This document shows, one piece after another, positions 2,450 to 8,637 of a DNA stretch of 64,000 bases. The position numbers and the translations under genes are program-made. The notes beneath the pieces are model-generated. The model was not told where the DNA came from. It did no database searches and saw only the letters and a list, made by a program, of their open reading frames with translations. Numbering within the stretch: the first letter of the stretch is position 1; the number at the start of each line of letters is the position of its first letter. Source of the DNA: Sphingosinithalassobacter sp. CS137 (GTDB taxonomy: Bacteria > Pseudomonadota > Alphaproteobacteria > Sphingomonadales > Sphingomonadaceae). The DNA is taken from positions 1,054,001-1,118,000 of the forward strand of contig NZ_CP060494.1 of the NCBI RefSeq assembly GCF_014334115.1, written 5' to 3'.

Positions 2450-3007
2450 TCACGGTTCCTCCCCGCTGGCGTTCGTTTCATTCTCCTCCGGCCCGAACAC
2501 CGGCTCGCCGCGCCGCCTCCGGTCGACGAAATCGGCGATGCTCGCGCTGGTGTTGTTGAGCAGGGGATAGGTGGTCGACGTGGTGATCCAGTCGGGACGC
2601 TGAGCGGGCCCGCCGCGCACCGTATCGATCAGCAGCGCGAGCAGCAGGAACGCCAGGCTGACGAGGACCAGCCCCTTCAGCGCACCGAAGCCCAGCCCCA
2701 GCGCGCGATCGATCGGGCCGAGGAAGCTCTGCCGCGTGCGCGATCCGATCGCGTTCGCCACCATCCGCCCGCCGAAATAGGTGACCCCCGCGATGATCGC
2801 GAAGGCGAGCACCGCGGCGCCCTGCACCGTGCCCACCGGCTCTGCCAGTGCCTGCGCCAGCGGCGTGTGGAAGAAGCGGATCGCGACGACGATGAACAGC
2901 CAGGCGAGCAACGCCAGCACTTCGGTGACGAAGCCGCGCCAGAGCCCGAGCACCGCCGACCCGCCGATCGCCAGCAGCACGATGATGTCGAGAGCGGTGA
3001 GTGTCAT
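2450..3007 (-). CDS. cvpA: CvpA family membrane protein
   Basis: A 185-residue inner-membrane protein of the CvpA/colicin V production family. Four hydrophobic segments are visible (about residues 5-22, 28-48, 62-85 and 103-125), with the family-like stretches GLWRGFVTEVLALLAWL and AVLAFAIIAGVTYFGGRMV. Cellular roles reported for the family include envelope homeostasis and purine-linked phenotypes, but its biochemistry is unclear. The stop overlaps the alternative GTG start of the GST gene. In relatives cvpA commonly sits next to radA; here a 4-kb AT-richer insert separates the two. Confidence 0.88.
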   Translation of the reverse strand: MTLTALDIIVLLAIGGSAVLGLWRGFVTEVLALLAWLFIVVAIRFFHTPLAQALAEPVGTVQGAAVLAFAIIAGVTYFGGRMVANAIGSRTRQSFLGPIDRALGLGFGALKGLVLVSLAFLLLALLIDTVRGGPAQRPDWITTSTTYPLLNNTSASIADFVDRRRRGEPVFGPEENETNASGEEP

Positions 3008-3469
3008 GCGCGGCCCCGGCGAGTGATGTGGCGGCCTACATACCCGGGAGCGGCGCGGGCGACTAGGTGGCGCGCGGCGACGGCTGGCCGCGAGTCGCAT
3101 GTCCGGGGCGGCGGTATCAGGATACCCGAACGCAGCGAATGCAGCGCTACACCCCCCCCTCCGCGCGGCCCCTGCGCCCGCCCGATGAAGAGCGGGAAGC
3201 GCCGATCGAGTGCGGGTTGGCATGGGACGGAGTGTACGGGATCGGAGCGGGTGTAGGACAGCGGAATTTTGGGGAGCAAGCACGCGGCTGGAATTGGGCC
3301 GTTAGCTGACGGGCAGCTCCAGGCCGGTGAAACATGGGAAGCGGACTTCGTTCAGCTATCCTGACGACTTACTCGCTCGCAAAGGCCTACATCGCTCCCG
3401 AAGCGAAGGCTCATTAGAGTCGCTCACCGTGGAGTTTCTAGTGGCGCTAACACTGACGGCGAGCCCGCG
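3008..3469. other. Non-coding stretch between cvpA and the HD-domain gene
   Basis: No convincing gene is seen on either strand in these 462 bases. The cvpA promoter should lie in the GC-rich right-hand part near 3008-3100, but only a weak TATGTA-like -10 (minus strand, about 3037-3042) is visible. An eight-C run lies at 3152-3159. From about 3300 onward the composition becomes more AT-rich, which I take as the edge of the inserted segment. The words AGCGGAC and TTCGTTC at 3340-3353 resemble the flank of the orphan gene near 34.4 kb. Confidence 0.5.
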
Positions 3470-5968
3470 TCATTGGGTATTAGGGCGACGAGCTGTCTTG
3501 TCTTCGGTCTCGCGGGACGGGATCGGGGCACCATAAGGAAGGTCTACGCGGAGTTCCACGCGACGGTCACCATCCGTGATCTGATGCACTGAGGCGGTGT
3601 CCTGCTTGTCGGGCAATATGCTCTTCGACTTATAGGCATGCACGACGAGCACGATCTGCTTGTCGAGCGCGATTGCATACCGGCGCCCCTGCATGCCGGC
3701 GCTGCCCTTGGCATGAACGGGCTCTGCCGCAGCTCCGCTATGCTTGTTCTCGAGCACGATGGTATCATTGAGGATCAGGTCAGTGATCCCGCCGCCGGCT
3801 TTGGGCGCCTCAGTGACACGAATGCCGGCAGCGGAGAAGAAGGCGCCGACCCAGCGCTGAAGCTCGGCCTCATCCGCGATGGTCTCAGATACCTTCCCAC
3901 TGCGGTACCATTCATCGATCATCCGCCACAACGCAGTAAGTGCGTTAGTCAGCTCGGCAAGCTGCTCGGCGGCAATGCCGCCCCTGAGCGCCGCATTTAG
4001 TTTTTGAGCAAGGACGATGCCGAAATCCTCATTTACGTCCAGCCATGGTTGCGGGACTGCTAGGTCCTTCTCTTGGACCGAGATGAGTGAGATGCGCTTA
4101 GTAGTTAGATGCTCAAAGGCGCGTGTGTCGACCACCCCTGCTTGCCGCAGGGCGTCGATCCACGCGTCATTTACCACGCGATCCGCCTTGATGAAGCCGT
4201 CCGCCTCCTGCGCCAGGACGATTCCATAGCGTGCGAAGAATTCGAGCTTGGCGGCGAGTGCTATAAGCGGAACTACGTCACGGGGGCAGAAGACGTAGCT
4301 GGTCCGCTTCTGCAGCTCGTAGGCGTTCGACCATTTGACTGGATTAAAGGAAAATTCCGGCACACGAAGCGAGCCATTGGGGTACCGCGCCAAGATCTTG
4401 ATCGCGTCGGCCTTTAGTGAGGAGAGATCGACGATGATCTGTTCGGGTCCGCATGCGACGAGCTTGGCGCGCATTGCTTGCATGTCCACAACCTCAATTC
4501 CGTGCGCGATCAACGCCTCGGCGCAGGTGATAGCGAGGGCATGGATACGCTCGCCAATCTCATAGCGCGCGCGCAGCGTCTTTAAGTCGGCCACAACCTT
4601 GAGCCAGAGGGTGCGGCGTCGGTTCTCCTGGCGCTCTTGGTCAAGATCGGGAGCCACGCCGATGAAGCGTCCTCGTAGCGCAAACGCGCGATGGAGAAGC
4701 TCTCGCGATAGGATGCCGTTGGCGAGGGCGGCAGCCGATGGGCTCGGCGGGGGAAAGCGATCGTGGCGAATATGTCCAGCGAAGAGGCGCAGCACGGTGT
4801 CGTCGCCCAAATTCACAAACAAATCTTCGAGCGAGAAGCGCTCTGTTCGGTCCCGCTCGGCGATGAGGATCAAGCGCTGCGCCATTGCCTCAGCGGCCCT
4901 GACCTTGTGATGATGATAGAGGCGGTCGTAGAGGAAGGTACGGCCAATCAGCATCTGCTCGAAGGAGCCGAAACCCGATGCGGCGATGCCAAGCTGGAGT
5001 AAGGTTTCGTGCGGAGCAAGCTTTACCCGGGCGCGTAGCTCCTTGAGCGAGCCATCGATATTTTCTTCACGCACTTGGAGGATTTCGAGGCGGGAAAGCA
5101 GACGGTCGGTGTCGAATCCGATCTCAAGCCCAGCGTGGTGAGCATCGCGCTGAAGATAGTCGAGCTTGTCGGCGTCGAGCTGGCCACTGACGACGGCGGT
5201 GAGATGGTCGGCGCCTGGACCTTCGACCGCGCCCGTGATCGCAGCCGTCAGCCGGTCTTGCAGAGCACCGATGGGAAGCGTGGCCGGAAGCCCGAACTCC
5301 CGGCGATTGAGAATGGCGGTGATCGGCTCCGAGAGGAGGATCATCACGGCGATTATTTCGGAGATCGCGGGCTCAGAATTGTACTGATAGATCGCAAGCA
5401 ACTCTGCGGCCAAGGCGCTTAGGTCCTGGCGCCAATCTGGTGCCTCGTCCTGCGGATCGATCGGGCGCAGGACAGCGTCGAGTTCCATTACAGGTTCGGT
5501 CGCGTGGCTGAACGGGCCGTGGCCAAGATCGTGGAATAGCGCCGCAAGACGGAGGCAGTAGCGATCCTCGTCGCGGATGACCGGTAGGGGATTGTCGGGC
5601 TGGTCACGGTTCCGCCGCTCGATCTGACGCGACAGTGTCGCCAGCGTGACCTCGACAGCACCGATGACCCCGAGGATGTGCTCAAGCCTGTCGTGGCAGG
5701 CGCTCGGGAAAACGAGTTGGGCAAGACCGAGCTGGCGCACGCCACGCATGCGCTGGAGCAAGTCGGTGTCGAGCAGTGCCACTTCCCAGGGCAGCAGCTC
5801 AATCGTTCCCCAAATTGGATCGTTGACCTGCTTTGGCCGGGATTGCGACCGCGTGCCTTGATCAAGCCGCCGTGCCAGAGGCTCAGTCCAACCGCCGACG
5901 AGTGCGTCCAGACGGTTTGACAAGTCAGGCGCAACGCCGCGCAGCCGCGCCCGCACGAAGCCTGTCAT
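3470..5968 (-). CDS. SAMHD1-like HD phosphohydrolase fused to a probable PD-(D/E)xK nuclease domain
   Basis: An 832-residue protein. Residues about 50-450 form an HD-superfamily phosphohydrolase of the COG1078/SAMHD1 type. DRLEH places the first metal histidine at H97, HDLGHGPFSH at 146-155 supplies the HD pair, and DADKLDYLQRDAHH at 265-278 supplies the fourth metal ligand (D267) with the motif that follows it in SAMHD1. In that family the enzyme removes triphosphate from dNTPs. A middle region (450-690) is unrecognised. Residues about 700-780 contain GGGITD (D730) and VLENK (E740, K742), the spacing of a PD-(D/E)xK nuclease core. ATG 5968 has an upstream AGGG. It is the second gene of a two-gene operon, 9 bases after its partner's stop. 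Codon use is more AT-rich than in neighbours (positions 4081-4140 are 32 of 60 G+C), suggesting transfer. dNTP depletion plus DNA cutting would suit antiphage defence, but that is inference. Confidence 0.8.
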   Translation of the reverse strand: MTGFVRARLRGVAPDLSNRLDALVGGWTEPLARRLDQGTRSQSRPKQVNDPIWGTIELLPWEVALLDTDLLQRMRGVRQLGLAQLVFPSACHDRLEHILGVIGAVEVTLATLSRQIERRNRDQPDNPLPVIRDEDRYCLRLAALFHDLGHGPFSHATEPVMELDAVLRPIDPQDEAPDWRQDLSALAAELLAIYQYNSEPAISEIIAVMILLSEPITAILNRREFGLPATLPIGALQDRLTAAITGAVEGPGADHLTAVVSGQLDADKLDYLQRDAHHAGLEIGFDTDRLLSRLEILQVREENIDGSLKELRARVKLAPHETLLQLGIAASGFGSFEQMLIGRTFLYDRLYHHHKVRAAEAMAQRLILIAERDRTERFSLEDLFVNLGDDTVLRLFAGHIRHDRFPPPSPSAAALANGILSRELLHRAFALRGRFIGVAPDLDQERQENRRRTLWLKVVADLKTLRARYEIGERIHALAITCAEALIAHGIEVVDMQAMRAKLVACGPEQIIVDLSSLKADAIKILARYPNGSLRVPEFSFNPVKWSNAYELQKRTSYVFCPRDVVPLIALAAKLEFFARYGIVLAQEADGFIKADRVVNDAWIDALRQAGVVDTRAFEHLTTKRISLISVQEKDLAVPQPWLDVNEDFGIVLAQKLNAALRGGIAAEQLAELTNALTALWRMIDEWYRSGKVSETIADEAELQRWVGAFFSAAGIRVTEAPKAGGGITDLILNDTIVLENKHSGAAAEPVHAKGSAGMQGRRYAIALDKQIVLVVHAYKSKSILPDKQDTASVHQITDGDRRVELRVDLPYGAPIPSRETEDKTARRPNTQ

Positions 5969-5977
5969 GGGTGCACC

Positions 5978-6391
5978 CTAAGCAGCCACCGGCTGCAGGG
6001 ATGCTCCAATGTCTCCTTTGATCACGTGTACGGTGTCACGCAGCATGCCGCCGAGCCGTCGCGCTTCACTTGTTGATAGTCCCACACCAACCGCGATCTG
6101 TCGGGCAAGATCATCATCCAACGTCACCTGCGTCGATAAATAAGTGGGGTTCGGCTCGCTAGTGAGCAGCGCCTCCTGCGCCGCCAGCAGGATGGAGGGT
6201 AGCTGGAGGCAGCGCAGGCCTACGTTTGAGTTGGAGAAGGTCAGTCCGCGGACGAGCGCGTCGGGCAGCTCTTCGCGCAGCTCGAACAACGCACGATCAA
6301 GGATACCGTGTGAACTGGGCATGCGCTCGTTAGGCGCGCCGAGACGCCAGAGGGCGGTTAGCAGCTCCGCTATCTCATACCGGTCGATCAT
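5978..6391 (-). CDS. Uncharacterised 137-residue partner of the HD/nuclease protein
   Basis: I do not recognise the family. The protein is mostly helical-looking and soluble, has no signal peptide or membrane segment, and contains a single cysteine (in GLRCLQLP). The N-terminal part MIDRYEIAELLTALWRLG could be a small helical domain, and the C-terminal part has the pattern TLDDDLARQIAVGVGLS. The start ATG 6391 is supported by GAGG seven bases upstream. It is the first gene of the operon that continues into the HD/nuclease gene and is transcribed away from the MerR-like gene. A tight operon suggests that it is a subunit, inhibitor or activator of the large protein. Confidence 0.72.
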   Translation of the reverse strand: MIDRYEIAELLTALWRLGAPNERMPSSHGILDRALFELREELPDALVRGLTFSNSNVGLRCLQLPSILLAAQEALLTSEPNPTYLSTQVTLDDDLARQIAVGVGLSTSEARRLGGMLRDTVHVIKGDIGASLQPVAA

Positions 6392-6438
6392 GTGAGCACC
6401 TCTGCGGAGATCGTTAGCCTGAAAAGCTTACAATCCAT

Positions 6439-6458
6439 AACTGGGGTTGACCCCAGTT
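6439..6458. promoter_or_regulatory. Perfect 20-bp palindrome, probable operator of the MerR-like regulator
   Basis: The arms AACTGGGGT and ACCCCAGTT flank a two-base centre TG. The palindrome sits between the divergent 137-residue gene and the regulator gene, 48 bp from the former's start. This is the size and symmetry expected for a MerR-family dimer site. No clear -35/-10 pair could be assigned around it. Confidence 0.65.
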
Positions 6459-6508
6459 CGAAACGGTTTCAAGCACATTTTGTTTCCCCCGTCAATTCGA
6501 GTTCGGAC

Positions 6509-6928
6509 GTGGCCGGCATCCTTATTCAGACTGCTCAAGTGACCGAGCTGGCCGGCATTACTGGCGAGCAGCTGCGGTACTGGAAGGGTGCGCTGCGTCC
6601 GATTGCGAAAAGAGACGGACGTAAGAAAGGCTATAGCTTCGCCGAGCTGGTGGCCATAGCGGCAATCGGAGAGGCGATGGCTCAATTCAGCCTCGATATC
6701 TCTCGATTTCAGGAGTCGGCAGAGGATTTCTTCGCGGCGGTCGAGGCCATTGTACGAGAGCAGCAGACTCCCGGAATGGTATACCTAAGCGGCGATCAGG
6801 TAAGTGTAGGCGAGCCGTTTCCGCAAGATGGCGAGGTGGCCCTCGTGTTCCAGATCAACCGGCTCGCGCGCCGCCTGCGCGAGCAGATGACCAGCGCGCC
6901 TCCTCCGGCGCAATTTAGCCTGATCTGA
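6509..6928 (+). CDS. MerR-like winged-helix transcriptional regulator
   Basis: A 139-residue protein with an N-terminal MerR-type winged helix: IQTAQVTELAGITGEQLRYW is the helix-turn-helix, and KGYSFAELVAIAAIGEAM is the wing and following helix. A C-terminal part of about 80 residues has no recognisable ligand site and no metal-binding cysteines. The frame is open back to a GTG at 6392, but that start would abut the divergent gene's ATG and place the palindrome inside the coding region. GTG 6509 puts the palindrome upstream and begins directly before the DNA-binding domain. No strong ribosome-binding site precedes either. It is likely to control the divergent operon and itself. Confidence 0.7.
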   Translation: MAGILIQTAQVTELAGITGEQLRYWKGALRPIAKRDGRKKGYSFAELVAIAAIGEAMAQFSLDISRFQESAEDFFAAVEAIVREQQTPGMVYLSGDQVSVGEPFPQDGEVALVFQINRLARRLREQMTSAPPPAQFSLI

Positions 6929-7170
6929 CCCTCGCCCGTCGGATGGCCCCTCGACCGATGGGCTCTGTCCTTCGCCCTTATTTCGACGGACTGCCTTGGG
7001 CCCCGCCCTTCGCCCACCCTAGTGTGATCGCTCATCACCAGACAGCCGATTGACGGGCAGGGTAGTCCGCACGTCGGTAGTCCCGCCGCTGTCGTGACCA
7101 TGAACGGCCAGGTTCCGGGCCTCTATCGAGCCAAGCTGAACGACAGGAATTAGGGCGCAAAGCCGTCCCC

Positions 7171-8538
7171 TCACCGCCCCAGCAAATGCTCCACGAACGC
7201 CCCGAGCGTCCTGAATCCCGCTACTTCCAGCGCGCTCTTTTCCACGCCGCTCGCCGGAGCCATCGCTTTGCCGAAGCCGAGTTTCGCGGCTTCGCGGCAG
7301 CGCAGGGTGGCGTGCGCCACAGGGCGGACTTCGCCTGACAGGGCGAGTTCGCCGAAGGCCACTGCGTCGGTCGGCACGGGCCGCTCGCTGAGCGCCGAGA
7401 CGAGCGCCGCCGCTACCGCGAGGTCGGCGGCGGGATCGGCGACGCGATAGCCGCCGGCGATGTTGAGATAGACTTCGCTGGTCGAGAAGCTGAGGCCGCA
7501 GCGCGCTTCGAGCACGGCGAGGATCATCGCGAGCCGGGCGCTGTCCCAGCCGACCACCGCGCGGCGGGGGGTGGCGCCGCTGGCGAGGCGCACGACGAGC
7601 GCCTGAATCTCGACGAGCACGGGGCGCGTGCCCTCCAGCGCGGGGAAGACCACGGTGCCCGAGATGCTTTCGTCACGGTCCGACAGGAACAGCGAGGAGG
7701 GGTTGCCGACCTCGCTCAGCCCCTCGCTCGCCATGGCGAACACGCCGATTTCGTCAGTGCCGCCGAAGCGGTTCTTCACCGCGCGCAGAATGCGATACTG
7801 GTGACTGCGCTCGCCCTCGAACGCGAGCACCGTATCGACCATGTGCTCGAGCACGCGCGGGCCGGCGATGCTGCCGTCCTTGGTCACATGCCCCACGAGC
7901 ACCAGCGCGGTGCCGCGTTCCTTGGCGAAGCGGATCAGCTCCTGCGCCGAGGCGCGCACCTGGCTGACCGTGCCCGGCGCGCCTTCGATCAGGTCCGAAT
8001 GCATCGTCTGGATCGAATCGATCACGAGCAGCGCGGGCGCCTGCCCCTGCCCCAGCGTGGTGAGGATGTCGCGCACGCTGGTCGCCGCGGCGAGCTGCAC
8101 GGGCGCGCTGCCGAGCCCGAGGCGCCGCGCGCGCAGCCGCACCTGATCCGCCGCCTCCTCGCCCGAGACATAGGCGACGCGCCGCCCGGCGAGCGCCAGC
8201 TTCGCCGCGGCCTGAAGCAGCAGCGTCGACTTGCCGATGCCGGGATCGCCGCCGATGAGCGTCGCCGACGCTTCGACGAAGCCGCCGCCCAGCGCGCGAT
8301 CGAGCTCGGCGATGCCGGTCGCCATCCGATCGGGCAGCGGGATTTCGGAATCGAGCCCGGAGAGCGCGATCGCGCGCCCGCCCGATTGGAGATTATGCTT
8401 GGCCTGAAACGGCGTGACGACCGCGCCGGCATCCTCGACCAGCGTGTTCCAGTCGCCGCAATCGGCGCATTGCCCCGCCCATTTCGACGCGACCGAGCCG
8501 CATTGCTGGCAGACATAGCGTTTCTGGGATTTCGCCAT
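7171..8538 (-). CDS. radA: DNA repair protein RadA (Sms)
   Basis: A 455-residue RecA-like ATPase involved in recombination intermediate processing. Visible in order: a C4 zinc finger (YVCQQCGS ... CADCGDW, cysteines about 10, 13, 24, 27), Walker A GGDPGIGKST, Walker B-type LLVIDSIQT, the RadA-specific KNRFGGTDEIG motif, and a C-terminal Lon-protease-like domain containing FGELALSGEVRPV. ATG 8538 gives the normal MAKSQKRY start; an ATG four codons upstream is less likely. The usual downstream neighbour cvpA is displaced by the accessory insert at 3.4-7.1 kb. Divergent from the glycosyltransferase gene. Confidence 0.96.
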   Translation of the reverse strand: MAKSQKRYVCQQCGSVASKWAGQCADCGDWNTLVEDAGAVVTPFQAKHNLQSGGRAIALSGLDSEIPLPDRMATGIAELDRALGGGFVEASATLIGGDPGIGKSTLLLQAAAKLALAGRRVAYVSGEEAADQVRLRARRLGLGSAPVQLAAATSVRDILTTLGQGQAPALLVIDSIQTMHSDLIEGAPGTVSQVRASAQELIRFAKERGTALVLVGHVTKDGSIAGPRVLEHMVDTVLAFEGERSHQYRILRAVKNRFGGTDEIGVFAMASEGLSEVGNPSSLFLSDRDESISGTVVFPALEGTRPVLVEIQALVVRLASGATPRRAVVGWDSARLAMILAVLEARCGLSFSTSEVYLNIAGGYRVADPAADLAVAAALVSALSERPVPTDAVAFGELALSGEVRPVAHATLRCREAAKLGFGKAMAPASGVEKSALEVAGFRTLGAFVEHLLGR

Positions 8539-8637
8539 GGCGGCAGCCATAGCGCAGACGGAACGATAAGGGAACAGATTCGGGACGGGAGCGCAACCAG
8601 TGGACGCCCGTTTCGCGCGCGGCTATCGCCGCCGCCG

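What the first reader, a model, noticed from the sequence alone, without database searches (positions are those of the whole stretch)
3470..6928. Three-gene accessory module: SAMHD1-like HD protein plus 137-residue partner, with divergent MerR-type regulator
Seen: two tightly spaced genes (9-base gap) transcribed together, a divergent MerR-like gene, and a perfect palindrome between them. The composition is clearly more AT-rich than neighbours (4081-4140 is 32 of 60 G+C), and the block separates radA from cvpA, which are usually next to each other in sphingomonads. Known: SAMHD1-type HD enzymes deplete dNTPs, and dNTP depletion is an established antiphage strategy. Inference: a regulated defence or conflict system with an effector, a partner subunit and a controller.
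Basis: partly seen in the sequence, partly recalled or inferred. Interest (0 to 1): 0.85.

Follow-up and report, generated by a model that had tools for sequence, protein, structure and literature searches.

The report
SAMHD1-like nuclease-fusion candidate defence module
A rare, mobile three-gene bacterial block encodes a protein resembling the human antiviral enzyme SAMHD1 joined to what looks like a DNA-cutting domain, beside a small conserved partner and usually its own switch gene, and it is probably an undescribed virus-defence system.

Summary
In detail: an 832-aa HD protein, a 137-aa partner, a divergent MerR-like gene and a palindrome lie between radA and cvpA in the lowest-GC 3.5-kb stretch of the window. 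It is a real mobile module. Partner and HD gene are adjacent in 14 of 15 fetched relatives; 11 of those 14 have a divergent HTH-like gene. The palindrome core TGGGGTTNACCCCA occurs once in the 3.19-Mb genome, here, and at the same place in four relatives. None of 60 other same-genus genomes searched has the full HD protein.

Five of 20 hand-picked neighbour proteins strongly match known defence genes (0 of 10 in a small control). It is no Clover member, and neither PADLOC nor the capped paper searches showed it.

Best reading: a new variant of dNTP-depletion defence with a fused nuclease. Defence, activities and trigger are inferred; nothing is experimental.

The parts
3470..5968 (-). 832-aa effector candidate: SAMHD1-like HD dNTPase core (about residues 43-626) fused to a C-terminal PD-(D/E)xK-like domain (about residues 690-811)
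3536..3901 (-). PD-(D/E)xK-like domain (residues about 690-811: E700, Q704, E720, G726, G727, D730, E740-N-K742, Q760-x-R762-R763-Y764, R807)
   Evidence: each residue in 30 of 30 homologues; same motif invariant in 13 locus-derived sequences, the window's included, down to 24% identity; weak hhalign support from two nuclease families, 3.6e-4 (D and E aligned) and 2.1e-3 (D and K aligned), control 0.36
5978..6391 (-). 137-aa partner, winged-helix-like, first gene of the operon
6439..6458 (.). operator-like palindrome AACTGGGGT-TG-ACCCCAGTT; core TGGGGTTNACCCCA at 6442-6455
   Evidence: once in the 3.19-Mb genome; same intergenic position in L009, L018, L019, L021
6509..6928 (+). divergent MerR-like regulator (GTG at 6509 favoured over 6392)
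   Evidence: alignment with nine divergent neighbours, 20-37% identity; Pfam MerR_1 14.6 bits, below its 21.6 cut-off
2450..3007 (-). flanking core gene cvpA (relatives' matches begin at about 3007, not 3283)
   Evidence: Pfam Colicin_V 1.9e-29; relatives
7171..8550 (-). flanking core gene radA
   Evidence: match in 41 of 41 genomes searched, the window's own included

Best explanation
A horizontally moving anti-phage module. SHOWN by sequence: one conserved operon (137-aa partner, then SAMHD1 core with a PD-(D/E)xK-like C-terminus), usually a divergent HTH-like gene, a palindrome between them shared exactly with 4 of the 11 relatives examined for it, patchy distribution, defence genes beside several copies. 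INFERRED: in uninfected cells the MerR-like protein sits on the palindrome and keeps the operon low. The HD core is an allosteric dNTP triphosphohydrolase of SAMHD1 type; it keeps the residues that read guanine at the SAMHD1 A1 site (D67, Q72, R75), so it is expected to assemble and switch on with GTP/dGTP plus a second nucleotide, or with oligonucleotides, that phage replication supplies. Active enzyme drains dNTPs, and the fused nuclease cuts DNA, stopping phage replication (possibly killing the cell). The winged-helix-like partner, translated just before the effector, is a subunit that gates the effector or places it on DNA.
Confidence: 0.55

Rival explanations
1. Toxin-antitoxin or addiction module of mobile elements: the dNTPase-nuclease fusion is a toxin and the 137-aa partner its antitoxin, kept for plasmid or island stability rather than phage defence.
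For: Two-gene operon with a small upstream gene and its own regulator; partner on six plasmid records, five of them with the HD gene whole or split, and on two viral contigs; HD gene broken in L012 and L020 while a partner match remains, and the partner alone in L013, as expected if losing the toxin is tolerated.
Against: An 832-aa two-domain enzyme with conserved allosteric residues is unlike a typical toxin; several neighbours match defence systems.
Confidence: 0.17
2. Accessory nucleotide-pool or DNA-repair enzyme: a SAMHD1 relative with a nuclease for end processing, acquired horizontally but not an immune system.
For: Prokaryotic SAMHD1-like dNTPases are general auxiliary genes (PMC7854603 section 10); human SAMHD1 has a dNTPase-independent role in DNA end resection (abstract of PMC9640623 in the listing).
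Against: Very sparse distribution (only the window's own genome among 396 of the order, 385 of the class, 398 of the phylum), defence genes beside several copies, dedicated regulator and palindrome.
Confidence: 0.2
3. Restriction-like system in which the winged-helix partner recognises foreign DNA and the PD-(D/E)xK domain is the main effector; the SAMHD1 core serves only as a nucleotide or oligonucleotide sensor that switches it on.
For: SAMHD1 allosteric sites can hold oligonucleotides and the A1 residues are conserved in prokaryotic SAMHD1-like enzymes (PMC7854603 section 10 and abstract); nuclease motif invariant in 30 of 30; partner winged-helix-like.
Against: HD catalytic residues are also invariant in the homologues, which a pure sensor would not need.
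Confidence: 0.2

Closest known systems
Clover (CloA dNTPase + CloB nucleotidyltransferase), PMC12265719
   Same: Two-gene operon of an HD dNTPase and a regulatory partner, found in defence islands; same HE dyad (H155/E158 here, H126/E129 in CloA)
   Different: CloA shares its features with SpdGTPase and has an alpha-helical C-terminal bundle; here the core is SAMHD1-like with a PD-(D/E)xK-like domain; the partner is winged-helix-like, not a nucleotidyltransferase; a divergent MerR-like gene is added
Defence dGTPases (SpdGTPase; Tal et al. 2022, known here only as cited in PMC12265719 and PMC12409349)
   Same: HD-domain dNTP hydrolysis proposed to starve phage
   Different: dGTPase models score only 12.8-18.8 bits here against cut-offs of 152-439; extra domain, partner and regulator
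Prokaryotic SAMHD1-like dNTPases (COG1078 family of PMC7854603; E. faecalis, Aquifex 2hek, SAMHD1 itself)
   Same: Same core and A1-site residues
   Different: The solved ones are 371-672 aa constructs without a known C-terminal nuclease-like domain, partner or regulator (the last is recalled, not tested)
PD-(D/E)xK nucleases (Mrr_cat, MTES_1575)
   Same: D followed by ExK; a Q-x-R-R-Y stretch like the QxxxY recalled for RecB-type nucleases
   Different: No Pfam family reached its cut-off; fused to a dNTPase core
CapW and similar transcription factors beside defence operons (PMC9122588, title and abstract start in the listing)
   Same: A dedicated regulator beside an immune operon
   Different: CapW is a WYL protein; this one is MerR-like, with its own palindrome

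Membership tests
SAMHD1-like (COG1078) dNTPase | HD motif and metal ligands | tested here: met
   H146, D147, D267 in 30 of 30, H97 in 29 of 29 that cover it
SAMHD1-like (COG1078) dNTPase | fold over the whole core, C-lobe included | tested here: met
SAMHD1-like (COG1078) dNTPase | A1 guanine-site residues D137, Q142, R145 (R451 not mapped) | tested here: met
   D67, Q72, R75, 28 of 28 sequences covering them; feature from PMC7854603 section 10
SAMHD1-like (COG1078) dNTPase | catalytic H210, D218, H233 (PMC7045340 passage) | tested here: inconclusive
   H150 kept, E158 in place of D218, H233 without clear counterpart
SAMHD1-like (COG1078) dNTPase | dNTP hydrolysis | not testable with these tools
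   -
Clover | CloB nucleotidyltransferase partner with [D/E]h[D/E] motif | tested here: not met
   no Pfam, NCBIfam or PADLOC match; only two invariant acidic columns, D32 and E79, far apart; winged-helix-like model
Clover | SpdGTPase-like CloA | tested here: not met
   dGTP_triPase 18.8 bits against a cut-off of 152; SAMHD1-type core plus C-terminal domain
PD-(D/E)xK nuclease | conserved D, ExK motif | tested here: met
   D730, E740, K742 in 30 of 30 and in 13 of 13 locus-derived sequences
PD-(D/E)xK nuclease | motif in register with known families | tested here: inconclusive
   MTES_1575 3.6e-4 (D and E aligned, alignment ends at E), Mrr_cat 2.1e-3 (D and K aligned, Q at E), control 0.36; probabilities 37% and 13%
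PD-(D/E)xK nuclease | curated family match or solved-structure match | tested here: inconclusive
   MmeI_N 0.033 and MTES_1575 0.12, below cut-offs; no PDB sequence match; the domain was not searched as a separate model
PD-(D/E)xK nuclease | DNA cleavage | not testable with these tools
   -
MerR regulator | MerR HTH over curated cut-off | tested here: inconclusive
   14.6 bits against 21.6
Rrf2/RsrR winged-helix protein (partner) | shared fold at clear significance | tested here: inconclusive
Anti-phage defence system | protects cells against phage | not testable with these tools
   only neighbourhood and distribution evidence

The most novel reading that the evidence does not exclude
A two-headed immune effector: one polypeptide that both drains dNTPs (SAMHD1 core) and cuts DNA (PD-(D/E)xK), switched by GTP/dNTPs or by oligonucleotides released in infection, with a winged-helix subunit that loads it on phage DNA and a dedicated MerR-like switch; a bacterial counterpart of SAMHD1 in which nucleotide depletion and nucleic-acid attack are physically joined.
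Probability: 0.33. Interest if true: 0.82.

Novelty: new variant of a known kind. Interest (0 to 1): 0.62.

Why it matters
dNTP depletion is a strategy shared by animals and bacteria, yet PMC12265719 states that bacterial dNTPase effectors worked by unknown mechanisms of regulation before Clover. This module would be a second, independent way of regulating one, and it joins a SAMHD1 core to a nuclease-like domain, which bears on whether SAMHD1 acts by dNTP depletion alone or also on nucleic acid. The two catalytic sites can be knocked out separately, so the question is directly testable.

Tried and rejected
Considered and rejected: Clover member; Dgt-type dGTPase; core gene of the genus (full-length HD only in the window's own genome among 100 searched; 0 of 60 other same-genus genomes; five further genomes have partial HD-core matches only). 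A known PADLOC system: only a weak dGTPase line, 17.7 bits. The three tRNA genes of the window lie beyond 16 kb, not at the block, and no convincing direct repeats bound it.

Led nowhere: Pfam and PDB searches with the C-terminal alignment, PDB and PHROGs searches with the partner, Foldseek with the partner; 15 short C-terminal relatives not followed. In the VIA-align list of the HD model the SAMHD1 core fills the rows, so the C-terminal domain is barely tested there. No -35/-10 assignment around the palindrome was made.

Absence in print rests on (20 of 289 papers listed; 15 of 23; no paper held three of the terms; 2 of 2; 2 of 2; 15 of 270; 3 of 3; 15 of 250), open-licence PMC only; no listed title or abstract start was about this module. 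What I saw: PMC12265719 part 1 of 8 and passages; PMC7854603 one section and passages; PMC7045340 and PMC12409349 passages; PMC9122588 and PMC9640623 listing entries only; the rest listings. Recalled, from no call: QxxxY as a RecB-type motif, the PD-(D/E)xK element order, D311/K116/N119 numbering of SAMHD1 (counted on the alignment), and reading L009/L011 neighbours as CBASS.
Full report
Observation. The genes, the 9-base gap, the palindrome and the low G+C are as described. The module has G+C 0.604 in a window of 0.670 and is the lowest 3.46-kb stretch there. The MerR-like gene probably starts at 6509, so the palindrome (6439-6458) lies between two divergent genes rather than inside one.

Site. 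In 24 same-genus genomes the radA-cvpA interval is 17-392 bp in 16; it is 1.4-2.8 kb in five (ORFs read by eye in two: a permease-like gene in one, three unrelated genes in the other); cvpA was not found in one and is on the opposite strand in two. The interval is thus variable, and the window's 4.16 kb from radA end to cvpA start reads as an acquired insert. The full HD protein was found only in the window's own genome among 100, and the profiles rang only there among 396 genomes of the order, 385 of the class (partner profile) and 398 of the phylum (HD profile at E <= 1e-60).

The family. In a 5.8-billion-protein set the partner has 206 matches and the HD protein 365 (only the 7994 candidates sharing most words were scored); the 120 HD rows listed have 47-100% identity. 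Scans gave eight loci in species genomes (two exact peptide patterns, a lower bound), two viral contigs and six plasmid records, of which I fetched five. Of these 15 loci, 14 have the HD gene right after the partner; the exception is a Rhizobium leguminosarum plasmid (L013). In L012 only the first half of the HD gene is adjacent, beside an annotated IS6 transposase; the rest lies elsewhere on the plasmid. L020 has an internal stop. From the other side, the HD profile finds the same two viral contigs, and the five plasmid records with the family-type HD protein, whole or split, all have the partner. Identities of the two proteins co-vary (r 0.948, 0 of 2000 permutations, 13 sequences), which shared descent alone would also give. 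Exact contig lengths recur in both protein lists for 32 of 59 partner rows of at least 4 kb; 13 shifted comparisons give 0-2.

Regulator and palindrome. A divergent HTH-like gene stands upstream in 11 of the 14 HD-partner loci; tblastn with the window's ORF finds seven of them, nine were aligned with it, and the one in L017 is HTH-like by eye and apparently of another MerR type. L011, L020 and L022 showed none. Of 12 intergenic regions examined, five (window, L009, L018, L019, L021; L009 and L021 look like close relatives) hold TGGGGTTNACCCCA and L012 a one-mismatch form; six do not. The core occurs once in the whole 3.19-Mb genome, 0 for the reversed control. In the 122 loci then held it occurs only in copies of the window's own site and in those four relatives. 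This is what a dedicated, autoregulating switch would look like; binding is inferred.

C-terminal domain. E700, Q704, E720, G726, G727, D730, E740-N-K742, Q760-x-R-R-Y764 and R807 are each in 30 of 30 homologues, and the motif is invariant in 13 locus-derived sequences down to 24% identity. Predicted elements are helix, short strands, a long strand with ENK, helix, strand (the PD-(D/E)xK order as I recall it), at poor confidence in places. Profile comparison gives MTES_1575 at 3.6e-4 with D and E aligned, Mrr_cat at 2.1e-3 with D and K aligned, and a control at 0.36. Pfam and PDB sequence searches give nothing over cut-off. The assignment is probable, not proven.

Context. I scanned 20 of 105 predicted neighbour ORFs of nine loci. 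Septu PtuA and PtuB lie next to the regulator in Litoreibacter (L016), QatC in L023, a PD-Lambda-2_B relative in L015, a type IIG enzyme in L019: 5 of 20 proteins at about 1e-29 or better, in 4 of 9 loci, against 0 of 10 in a control. An ABC ATPase in L017 (mad3, 2.8e-27) was discounted, and weak PADLOC lines mean little: RadA itself gives one. Plasmid records add annotated nucleotidyltransferase, HNH, helicase and DUF1837 genes (L009), nucleotidyltransferase, ThiF, Mov34, PD-(D/E)XK and UvrD genes (L011), and a restriction endonuclease with a 7-cyano-7-deazaguanine synthase (L012). In L024 a phage baseplate gene lies nearby.

Verdict. A rare, mobile, regulated operon coupling a SAMHD1-type dNTPase to a probable nuclease and a small partner, most likely anti-phage. 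Its nearest known relative in design is Clover, of which it is not a member. Confidence 0.55 for the stated reading; the activities, trigger and role of the partner need the bench.

Noticed in passing
window 3007-7171 and L055-L060: The radA-cvpA interval is a variable spot across the genus: little or nothing in 16 of 24 genomes, other genes in five; in two genomes cvpA lies on the opposite strand.
   Followed up: partly
L013:10001-10339: Rhizobium leguminosarum plasmid pRlX5 has two places matching the partner; around the one I fetched there is no HD gene within the 20-kb stretch. Remnant, orphan antitoxin or another pairing.
   Followed up: partly
L012 and its plasmid (NZ_CP092969.1 112672-113850 and 146931-148241): The Methylocystis HD gene lies in two pieces about 33 kb apart, an annotated IS6 transposase at the break, while the partner stays intact.
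   Followed up: partly
L024: A divergent relative (34% identity) lies on a viral contig near a phage baseplate hub gene, so some copies may be prophage-borne.
   Followed up: no
Klebsiella, Listeria, Staphylococcus, Enterococcus phage records: Eleven phage records hold SAMHD1-like HD-core matches (24-35% identity, at most 42% of the query covered).
   Followed up: no
window 2450-3470: The listed cvpA ORF starts at 3283, but relatives' matches begin at about 3007; I recognised no gene in the 463 bp between that start and the HD stop.
   Followed up: no
P0001: The closest partner relative (93%) is on a 5.5-kb contig labelled Pseudomonas sp. MAG; the label may be a binning error.
   Followed up: no
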